This document shows positions 21,301 through 22,017 of a stretch of 64,000 bases of DNA, piece after piece; positions within the stretch are counted from its first letter, which is position 1; the number at the start of each line of letters is the position of its first letter. Source of the stretch: Bacillus nitratireducens (GTDB taxonomy: Bacteria; Bacillota; Bacilli; Bacillales; Bacillaceae_G); NCBI RefSeq assembly GCF_001884135.1, contig NZ_MAOC01000039.1, positions 62,001 to 126,000 of the forward strand, given 5' to 3'. The notes beneath the pieces were generated by a model. The model saw only the letters and a list, made by a program, of their open reading frames with translations, had not been told where the DNA came from and ran no database searches. The translations under genes were made by a program, and so were the position numbers.

Positions 21301-22017
21301 TCATAGTTCAATTTTATTTCGAAGTCGTTTTACATAATTACGACTTACTGGAATCGGTTGCTCATCGTACCCGTCTAAATACAAATTATACGTGCCATTA
21401 TAATAAGGTTTAAGTTCTTGTACATATAACATATTAATTAAATAACTTTTATGTACACGTAAAAAATCATATGCATTAAGCTTATTTTCTAATTCCTGAA
21501 GTGTGTATGTTGAAATATGATGATTATTCGTTGTATAAATTGAAACTGTTTTATTTTCCTTATTTTTACTTACATATATAATATCCTCTGGAAAAATATA
21601 TCTAATTCCCTCATGGCCTTCTATCGGCAGTTTACGCAAATGACTCTTTGCTTTCTCACTTTTTTCTTTCCCCATTTTATATAAAATGAATTGTAAATCT
21701 TCTTCACGAAATGGTTGCAATAAATAATAAAATGCTTGGAAACGAAAAGCTGTAATTGTCTCTTCTATATCCTCACCAATAAAAATAAATTTTGTATAAC
21801 AATTCACTTCTCGTAACAAGCTCGAATATTCAAAACCAGTGCCGTCTACTAATTGCGAATTTAAAAAAACAAAATCAGGTGTATGTTTTTTCATTATTAG
21901 CAAAGATTCTGTTCCGGCTCTCGCTTCAAAACATTCTACATTCCGAATGTTCTCAGTAAAGTACTCAACTAATTTTCTTCGCTCTTCTGTCTCTTCCATG
22001 ATAAGTAAAATTTTCAT
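21301..22017 (-). CDS. LytTR regulator with degenerate receiver domain
   Basis: A 238-residue protein with response-regulator architecture. The C-terminal LytTR DNA-binding domain (about residues 130-238) contains FLRVHKSYLINMLYVQELKPYY and IPVSRNYVKRLR. The N-terminal receiver fold is recognisable (PDFVFLNSQLVDGTGFE), but the phosphoacceptor Asp is Asn53, the acidic pair is Met7-Glu8, the Thr is Gly81 and the Lys is Gln101. No histidine kinase gene is adjacent. It is therefore a pseudo-receiver regulator, probably responding to a ligand or protein partner. It lies directly upstream of cstA on the same strand. Confidence 0.9.
   Translation of the reverse strand: MKILLIMEETEERRKLVEYFTENIRNVECFEARAGTESLLIMKKHTPDFVFLNSQLVDGTGFEYSSLLREVNCYTKFIFIGEDIEETITAFRFQAFYYLLQPFREEDLQFILYKMGKEKSEKAKSHLRKLPIEGHEGIRYIFPEDIIYVSKNKENKTVSIYTTNNHHISTYTLQELENKLNAYDFLRVHKSYLINMLYVQELKPYYNGTYNLYLDGYDEQPIPVSRNYVKRLRNKIEL

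What the first reader, a model, noticed from the sequence alone, without database searches (positions are those of the whole stretch)
21301..22017. LytTR regulator whose receiver has lost every phosphorylation residue, upstream of cstA
The protein aligns well with the normal LytR at 47146-47886, which has D8/D9, D54, Thr82 and the Lys of YILKPF. Here they are Met7-Glu8, Asn53, Gly81 and Gln101. The DNA-binding domain is intact, no histidine kinase is adjacent, and cstA-ybdD lies directly downstream. A phosphorylation-independent LytTR activator of a CstA carrier, perhaps a direct metabolite sensor, would differ from the known BtsSR and LytSR pyruvate systems.
Basis: partly seen in the sequence, partly recalled or inferred. 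Interest (0 to 1): 0.75.

Follow-up and report, generated by a model that had tools for sequence, protein, structure and literature searches.

The report
Kinase-less LytTR regulator beside cstA
A DNA-binding regulator beside a pyruvate-type carrier gene has no partner kinase next to it and has lost the parts needed to receive a phosphate, yet its probable DNA target is kept, so it probably controls the carrier by another route.

Summary
The gene is on the minus strand. Its receiver reads Met7, Glu8, Asn53, Gly81, Gln101 where 92 of 92 other aligned LytTR regulators keep (D/E)-D-D-T-K. It is not local decay: all six clade members found (window, L001, three named Ectobacillus, one unnamed near-twin of E. 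antri) lack the first acidic residue and the Thr. Four keep Asp53, so loss was stepwise. The nearest outside relatives in the tree are LytS-LytT pairs beside MctP-like carriers. The gene is under purifying selection. New evidence links it to cstA: a motif trained on 65 ordinary LytT-cstA gaps (ACAT[G/C]TTA, 13 bp, ACAT[G/C]TTA) has its two best window matches in the gap between this gene and cstA. The sense pair stands at the same promoter position in the four relatives that have the gap, though it is weaker than three quarters of the controls. Best reading: an orphan, phosphorylation-independent LytTR regulator, probably activator, of cstA. How it is switched is not shown; direct metabolite sensing is untested. 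New variant of a known kind.

The parts
21301..22017 (-). orphan LytTR regulator, 238 aa, pseudo-receiver plus LytTR domain
21682..22017 (-). pseudo-receiver domain (residues 1-112): M7, E8, N53, G81, Q101; Tyr98 and Pro102-Phe103 kept
21310..21606 (-). LytTR DNA-binding domain (residues 138-236), FLRVHKS motif intact
   Evidence: motif definition from PMC4227749
21252..21280 (-). LytT-type tandem site ACATGATA-N13-TCATGATA (21-bp repeat) upstream of the cstA promoter, 12.3 bits
21294..21301 (-). possible third half-site ACAAGTAA, 21 bp further upstream, overlapping the regulator's stop codon; weak here (0.7 bits) and in L001 (-4.3), stronger in L003, L004, L013 (5.9-6.6)
21212..21217 (-). probable -10 TACAAT of cstA (TATAAT in L003, L004, L013), read by eye; the consensus scan does not list it
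   Evidence: sequence
19103..21193 (-). cstA, pyruvate/H+ symporter-type carrier (994.5 bits to NCBIfam PRK15015, below its cut-off 1188); translation start probably the GTG at about 21178, after GGGGGGA
18907..19131 (-). ybdD-like small protein (Pfam Sel_put)
22228..23427 (-). MFS transporter (best NCBIfam match aromatic acid/H+ symport family, below cut-off; NiaP-like from recall), conserved upstream neighbour, no LytT site in its promoter
22123..22157 (-). terminator-like hairpin separating the MFS gene from the regulator
17708..18763 (-). 5TMR_LYT-GGDEF diguanylate cyclase-like protein next to cstA-ybdD (context; link to the regulator is speculative)

Best explanation
It is an orphan LytTR transcription regulator with a pseudo-receiver. 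It descends from the response regulator of a LytS/LytT (monocarboxylate/pyruvate-type) two-component system and has no partner kinase gene beside it any more. It binds, without phosphorylation, to tandem 21-bp-spaced LytT-type half-sites just upstream of the cstA promoter, and most probably activates cstA-ybdD, perhaps partly by read-through from its own gene. SHOWN by sequence: loss of the phosphotransfer set, no adjacent kinase, purifying selection, an intact DNA-binding domain, and a conserved LytT-type site at one promoter. INFERRED: that this protein binds that site, that it activates, and that the receiver dimerises or is held active without phosphate so that output follows its own level plus a possible CodY-like nutrient control of the promoter. 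Which input, if any, the pseudo-receiver reads is open.
For: Key residues: 6 of 6 clade members lack DD1 and have Gly for Thr; 92 of 92 others are intact. Clade support 100, and sister to two LytS-LytT-MctP-like loci with SH-aLRT 99.9 (quick tree, no bootstrap). Kinase: LytS found beside the regulator in 90 of 91 other loci, in none of the clade's within the DNA held. Selection, window against L001: dN/dS 0.089 for the gene, 0.112 receiver, 0.053 LytTR. Target: in 65 control LytT-cstA gaps the 21-bp repeat scores 7.40 of 9 against 5.02-5.69 at the other offsets from 14 to 32; this spacing agrees with B. subtilis LytT (two 13-nt boxes, 8 apart, PMC5626966) and with LytTR sites in general (PMC4847170). 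The motif trained on those controls (118 half-sites, 59 of the 65 gaps) ranks the regulator-cstA gap 1st and 2nd over both strands of the window (127,942 positions). All five clade members with cstA downstream have the pair in register with the -10 (12.3-15.7 bits, shuffle p 0.0005-0.002). Of 28 other cstA orthologue promoters 3 score above 12, and in those 3 genomes a LytS-LytT pair was found on another contig than cstA. Half-sites upstream of the -10 suit an activator (inference). Precedent: ComE activates without phosphorylation (PMC12323615 abstract).
Against: No binding or expression data. The repeat alone is weak: in L003, L004 and L013 21 bp is not the leading offset at most word lengths, and a joint test over all offsets is not significant (p 0.57-0.71; 0.026-0.09 at the pre-set 21 bp). 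The window's site (12.3 bits) is below the lower quartile of the controls (13.3; median 19.0). E. funiculus (L002) keeps the regulator without cstA beside it, without a close cstA orthologue in the genome at the threshold used, and without a good site near it. Four clade members keep Asp53, so some phosphorylation may persist there. The motif seeds were typed after looking at control and clade sequences. Whether any of the other 25 genomes without a site also holds an unlinked LytS-LytT pair was not tested.
Confidence: 0.6

Rival explanations
1. The pseudo-receiver is itself the sensor: it binds a metabolite (pyruvate or another carboxylate) or a second messenger and this replaces phosphorylation.
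For: The receiver has diverged far faster than the DNA-binding domain: 34-37% against 70-77% identity between the window and L002, L003, L004 and L013, while canonical pairs of equal LytTR identity have receivers at 70-77% on average, minimum 63%; yet it stays under purifying selection. Pseudo-receivers that bind ligands are known (PMC12632262 section 20). A 5TMR_LYT-GGDEF protein sits beside cstA-ybdD here and in L003.
Against: Only 28 of 112 receiver positions are invariant in the clade. Fast divergence is also what relaxed constraint gives, and between L003 and L004 receiver and LytTR identities are normal (70 and 73%).
Confidence: 0.15
2. Redox switch: cysteines control dimerisation (Cys29 and Cys73 in the window lineage; a linker Cys in part of the other members).
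For: Cys29 and Cys73 are in window and L001 and no Cys lies in the receivers of the other four; L004 and L013 have Cys123 in the linker. Cys-controlled pseudo-receivers are described: RitR by a linker Cys, Hp1021 by a Cys at DD+19 (PMC12632262).
Against: No cysteine position is shared by the whole clade; Cys29 is near but not at DD+19.
Confidence: 0.05
3. Residual or cross phosphorylation: the regulator still works as an inefficient response regulator, served by LytS (47864-49633) or acetyl phosphate.
For: Four clade members keep Asp53 and L002 also Lys101. PMC12632262 notes that such substitutions need not abolish phosphorylation, and Asn can deamidate to Asp (PMC4395418).
Against: The window protein has Asn53 with DD1, Thr and Lys all gone; no adjacent kinase; LytS has its own intact LytR and an LrgAB-like pair beside it (ORFs, LrgAB named from recall).
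Confidence: 0.08
4. Decaying remnant: the protein is on its way out and has no regulatory role.
For: Fast receiver divergence; the own-promoter site seen in L003, L004 and L013 (9.9-11.2 bits) is absent in window, L001 and L002; weak site at cstA compared with controls.
Against: Open frame in all six, dN/dS 0.089, LytTR domain 95% identical to L001, promoter site kept in register.
Confidence: 0.08
5. A protein partner (for example CstA itself or another membrane protein) sequesters and releases the regulator, as in LytTR Regulatory Systems.
For: Regulator and carrier genes are adjacent in five of six clade loci; LytTR Regulatory Systems are known (PMC6193735, seen only in search listings; their inhibitor design is recalled).
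Against: No inhibitor-like small membrane protein was recognised by eye in the locus (not tested for membrane spans); LRS regulators have no receiver (recalled).
Confidence: 0.04

Closest known systems
LytS/LytT (LytSR, BtsSR, LytST-PftAB) pyruvate-type two-component systems
   Same: Receiver-LytTR architecture, tandem half-sites with 21-bp period, carrier gene (CstA family, PftAB, MctP-like) as target; nearest relatives L132/L133 and the LytT-cstA loci are of this kind.
   Different: No adjacent kinase and no full phosphotransfer set; upstream neighbour is an MFS transporter instead of LytS.
Pseudo-receiver / aspartate-less receiver (ALR) response regulators (RitR, ChxR, HP1043, FrzS)
   Same: Recognised as PF00072 but lacking key residues; Asn at the Asp position is the second commonest ALR substitution, 16%, and is found in RitR (PMC4395418 passages).
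   Different: No LytTR example was named in what I saw: 'LytTR' occurs 0 times in the main texts of PMC12632262 and PMC4395418.
S. mutans ComE
   Same: Regulator (LytTR type from recall) that can activate its promoter without phosphorylation and without its kinase (PMC12323615 abstract).
   Different: ComE keeps Asp60 and its kinase ComD; here the site is lost (window, L001) and no kinase is adjacent.

Membership tests
LytTR-family response regulator (LytSR/BtsSR type) | LytTR DNA-binding domain | tested here: met
   PF04397 95.2 bits
LytTR-family response regulator (LytSR/BtsSR type) | receiver domain with intact D-D-D-T-K set | tested here: not met
   M7 E8 N53 G81 Q101
LytTR-family response regulator (LytSR/BtsSR type) | adjacent LytS-type kinase | tested here: not met
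   MFS upstream, cstA downstream; 90 of 91 other loci have LytS
LytTR-family response regulator (LytSR/BtsSR type) | tandem site with 21-bp period at a carrier promoter | tested here: met
   weaker than three quarters of the controls; no binding assay
Pseudo-receiver | scores as PF00072 but lacks residues for phosphotransfer | tested here: met
   38.1 bits, cut-off 30.2; residues
Aspartate-less receiver (ALR) | no Asp at the phosphorylation position | tested here: met
   Asn53 in window and L001; Asp53 in L002, L003, L004, L013, which are pseudo-receivers but not ALRs
Pseudo-receiver | activity independent of phosphorylation | not testable with these tools
   needs protein and expression work
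LytTR Regulatory System (LytTR plus membrane inhibitor) | no receiver domain (recalled) | tested here: not met
   receiver-like domain present
NCBIfam LytR or BtsR equivalog | score above curated cut-off | tested here: not met
   94.5 of 246 bits (BtsR), 90.2 of 375 (LytR)

The most novel reading that the evidence does not exclude
The LytS sensing module was moved from a kinase to a second-messenger enzyme: the 5TMR_LYT-GGDEF protein next to cstA-ybdD senses the carrier's substrate and makes c-di-GMP, and the pseudo-receiver of this LytTR regulator reads c-di-GMP (or, in a milder form, reads the metabolite directly). A His-Asp relay would have been replaced by ligand signalling at a kept promoter site.
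Probability: 0.06. Interest if true: 0.85.

Novelty: new variant of a known kind. Interest (0 to 1): 0.52.

Why it matters
The mechanisms that switch bacterial pseudo-receivers 'remain a mystery' according to a 2025 review (PMC12632262 abstract). This clade gives a natural series: intact LytT with LytS, then a kinase-less form that keeps Asp but not DD1 and Thr (L002, L003, L004, L013), then a form without Asp (window, L001), with a LytT-type DNA site at cstA in all but L002. That makes it possible to ask what replaces phosphorylation while the target is kept nearly constant. It also suggests a kinase-free route for controlling a CstA-type carrier in Bacillaceae.

Tried and rejected
Recent decay in the window: rejected, because L001 shares M7/N53/G81 and the other four members share the loss of DD1 and Thr. 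MFS gene as target: rejected, best site score in its promoter region 2.3 bits or less in five of five loci. An RNA structure in the regulator-cstA gap: z -0.37, not notable. Defence system: no PADLOC match. A viral-contig scan confirmed no close relative; in plasmids 125 records match, all under 60% identity. The first spacing of my site pattern was wrong by one base; the corrected pattern is. The genome-wide pattern was drawn from the clade's own promoters, so its exact hits at cstA in G003, G004 and G005 are by construction; only the lack of other exact hits in the four genomes is informative. CodY-like box: 2 window matches with up to 2 mismatches against 2.1 expected, so the count is not above chance; only its place and partial conservation speak for it. 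The nucleotide identity of cstA printed is meaningless (partial gene in L001) and was not used. Row choices: one search aligned 98 rows (window RR, window LytR and 96 of the 97 loci, L124 left out as the same place as L010; L005-L008 and the cstA loci L042-L071 had been left out). The tree used 57 rows: L011, L012, L125 were left out (long branches), and about every second of the rest. One search used 65 of the 73 loci with CstA (gaps of 60-400 bp). One search took the 30 best cstA loci plus window, L001 and L003. Papers, as seen: PMC12632262 abstract and sections 4, 7, 18, 20; PMC4395418, PMC5626966, PMC4847170, PMC12632267, PMC10653868, PMC7730263, PMC4227749 passages only; PMC12323615 abstract and outline; PMC6193735 listing only. 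Searches for a description of this regulator; one search found none, the others list only the best papers. None of the listed titles or abstract starts describes a LytTR pseudo-receiver beside cstA; most subscription papers are not held.

Full report
What is there. The gene at 21301-22017 is on the minus strand and codes for 238 aa. Along that strand the order is an MFS transporter (22228-23427), a terminator-like hairpin (22123-22157), the regulator, cstA (19103-21193), ybdD (18907-19131), a terminator-like hairpin (18880-18905), then a 5TMR_LYT-GGDEF protein (17708-18763). Pfam finds a weak receiver domain and a strong LytTR domain. The window's ordinary LytR (47146-47886) stands beside LytS (47864-49633), with an LrgAB-like pair downstream (named from recall; ORFs). 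A further kinase-like ORF at 15080-16651 was not scanned.

The receiver. In an alignment of 98 LytTR regulators the positions of DD1, DD2, D, T and K read M, E, N, G, Q in the window. 92 of 92 sequences outside its clade read D/E, D, D, T, K. All six have Glu at DD2, Gly for Thr and a non-acidic DD1. Asp53 is kept in L002, L003, L004 and L013 and is Asn in the window and L001. Lys101 is kept only in L002. So the receiver lost its set in steps, and the window lineage has gone furthest. L001 comes from a 4.5 kb contig filed under a Sediminibacterium MAG; its four genes are 88-96% identical to the window's, so it is most likely a misplaced contig of a B. cereus-group relative (inference).

Not a pseudogene. 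Between the window and L001 dN/dS is 0.089 for the gene, 0.112 for the receiver and 0.053 for the LytTR domain. Still, the receiver has diverged far more than its DNA-binding domain: 34-37% against 70-77% identity between the window and L002, L003, L004, L013, while canonical pairs with the same LytTR identity have receivers at 70-77% on average (minimum 63%). Between L003 and L004 the two domains are alike (70 and 73%), so the acceleration is on the window branch and, less, on L002. Kept in all six are Gly61, Ala90-Phe91, Ala95, Tyr98, Pro102-Phe103 and, in the output domain, F185, R187, H189 and S225-R226; S191 is invariant in the alignment.

Where it came from. In a tree of 57 regulators the six form one clade (100) on a long stem (1.57) that is sister, with SH-aLRT 99.9, to two LytT proteins, L132 and L133 (quick method, no bootstrap). 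Those two have intact receivers, an adjacent LytS-type kinase and an MctP-like monocarboxylate symporter downstream (338 and 327 bits against a cut-off of 625, so MctP-like only). Of 91 other regulator loci examined, 90 have LytS beside them and 73 have a CstA-family gene. The six have no LytS in the DNA held: in its place stands an MFS transporter. The cstA of the window belongs to another subfamily (28-51% to the LytT-linked ones). Of 30 loci with its closer orthologues (77-84%) only two, L042 and L043 (the places of L004 and L013), carry a LytTR regulator within 1.5 kb. Close relatives of the regulator are rare: 4 of 19 genomes of the family at E below 1e-70, and, besides these, nothing above 190 bits except L132 and L133 in samples of 299 genomes of the order and 398 of the class.

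The DNA target. In 65 gaps between canonical LytT genes and cstA, direct repeats peak sharply at a 21-bp offset (mean best match 7.40 of 9, other offsets from 14 to 32: 5.02-5.69). The half-site is ACAT[G/C]TTA. This spacing is the published one for B. subtilis LytT (PMC5626966) and fits LytTR sites in general (PMC4847170). A matrix trained on these gaps alone (118 half-sites from 59 of them; typed seeds) ranks two overlapping pairs in the window's regulator-cstA gap first and second over both strands (127,942 positions). The first (14.5 bits) is read on the other strand; the sense pair (12.3 bits) is ACATGATA-N13-TCATGATA. It is weaker than three quarters of the controls (lower quartile 13.3, median 19.0). 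The same pair stands, ungapped relative to the -10 box, in L001, L003, L004 and L013 (12.3-15.7 bits, shuffle p 0.0005-0.002), with a third phased half-site that is good in L003, L004 and L013 and poor in the window and L001. As a control, of 28 cstA orthologue promoters without this regulator 3 score above 12, the next 7.7. In those 3 genomes (G215, G077, G190) a LytS-LytT pair without adjacent cstA was found on another contig (L017, L015, L027). Whether any of the other 25 genomes holds such a pair was not tested. So a LytT-type site at this cstA subfamily exists elsewhere, and the clade appears to have kept or acquired such control with a kinase-less regulator. The MFS promoter has no site. 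The regulator's own promoter has one in L003, L004 and L013 (9.9-11.2 bits) but not in the window, L001 or L002.

How it probably works. The half-sites lie upstream of a promoter with a good -10 and no clear -35 (by eye; the scan does not list it), which suits an activator (inference). With no phosphorylation chemistry left, the simplest account is a regulator that dimerises and binds by default, its output set by its own amount and by the promoter. Precedent for a regulator acting without phosphate is S. mutans ComE (PMC12323615 abstract). Ligand sensing, redox control through cysteines, residual phosphorylation and a protein partner remain possible; none has direct evidence here.

Weak points. 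No experiment. The repeat test in the clade's sequences is not significant across all offsets, so the site claim rests on the outside motif, the register and the control promoters. E. funiculus keeps the regulator without cstA beside it; a 134-nt repeat stands on both sides of the regulator there (two copies upstream, one downstream), which hints at a rearrangement. Fixation in the B. cereus group is untested beyond L001.

Novelty. Pseudo-receivers are common: about 6% of a representative set of bacterial receivers, by PMC12632262 section 4. Asn at the Asp position is the second most frequent ALR substitution (PMC4395418). LytS/LytT control of pyruvate carriers is known. The combination, a LytTR pseudo-receiver without adjacent kinase at a cstA promoter with a stepwise evolutionary series, was not found in the searches listed under Tried and rejected. 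I call it a new variant of a known kind.

Noticed in passing
window 17708-18763 (-); L003 10305-11357 (+): A diguanylate cyclase-like protein with the LytS-type 5TMR_LYT sensor domain lies next to cstA-ybdD in the window and in E. panaciterrae; L004 has a PAS-GAF-GGDEF-EAL protein there on the other strand.
   Followed up: partly
L045, L046, L053 (upstream of cstA): Three cstA orthologue loci carry a 5TMR_LYT-HisKA-HATPase kinase directly upstream of cstA, a different sensor arrangement from LytS.
   Followed up: partly
L048, L049, L054 with L017, L015, L027: Strong LytT sites (23.4-23.9 bits) at cstA promoters in three genomes in which a LytS-LytT pair lies on another contig, suggesting control in trans.
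   Followed up: partly
window 21221-21235: CodY-box-like palindrome in the cstA promoter; similar elements with 1 to 4 mismatches recur in other cstA orthologue promoters.
   Followed up: partly
window 21242-21266 (-): An inverted repeat (AAATCCTTC...GGAGGATTT) encloses the downstream half-site; by eye E. panaciterrae has a different inverted repeat at the same place. Could be a weak terminator of the regulator gene.
   Followed up: no
L002 5606-5873 and 6782-6915: A 134-nt repeated element stands on both sides of the regulator gene in E. funiculus, which has no cstA beside it.
   Followed up: no
window 21178-21193: The cstA start is probably GTG at about 21178, since the ATG at 21193 lies before the GGGGGGA that looks like its ribosome-binding site.
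   Followed up: no
L004, L013 residue 123: A single linker cysteine, a position that in RitR controls dimerisation (PMC12632262), is present in these two clade members only.
   Followed up: no
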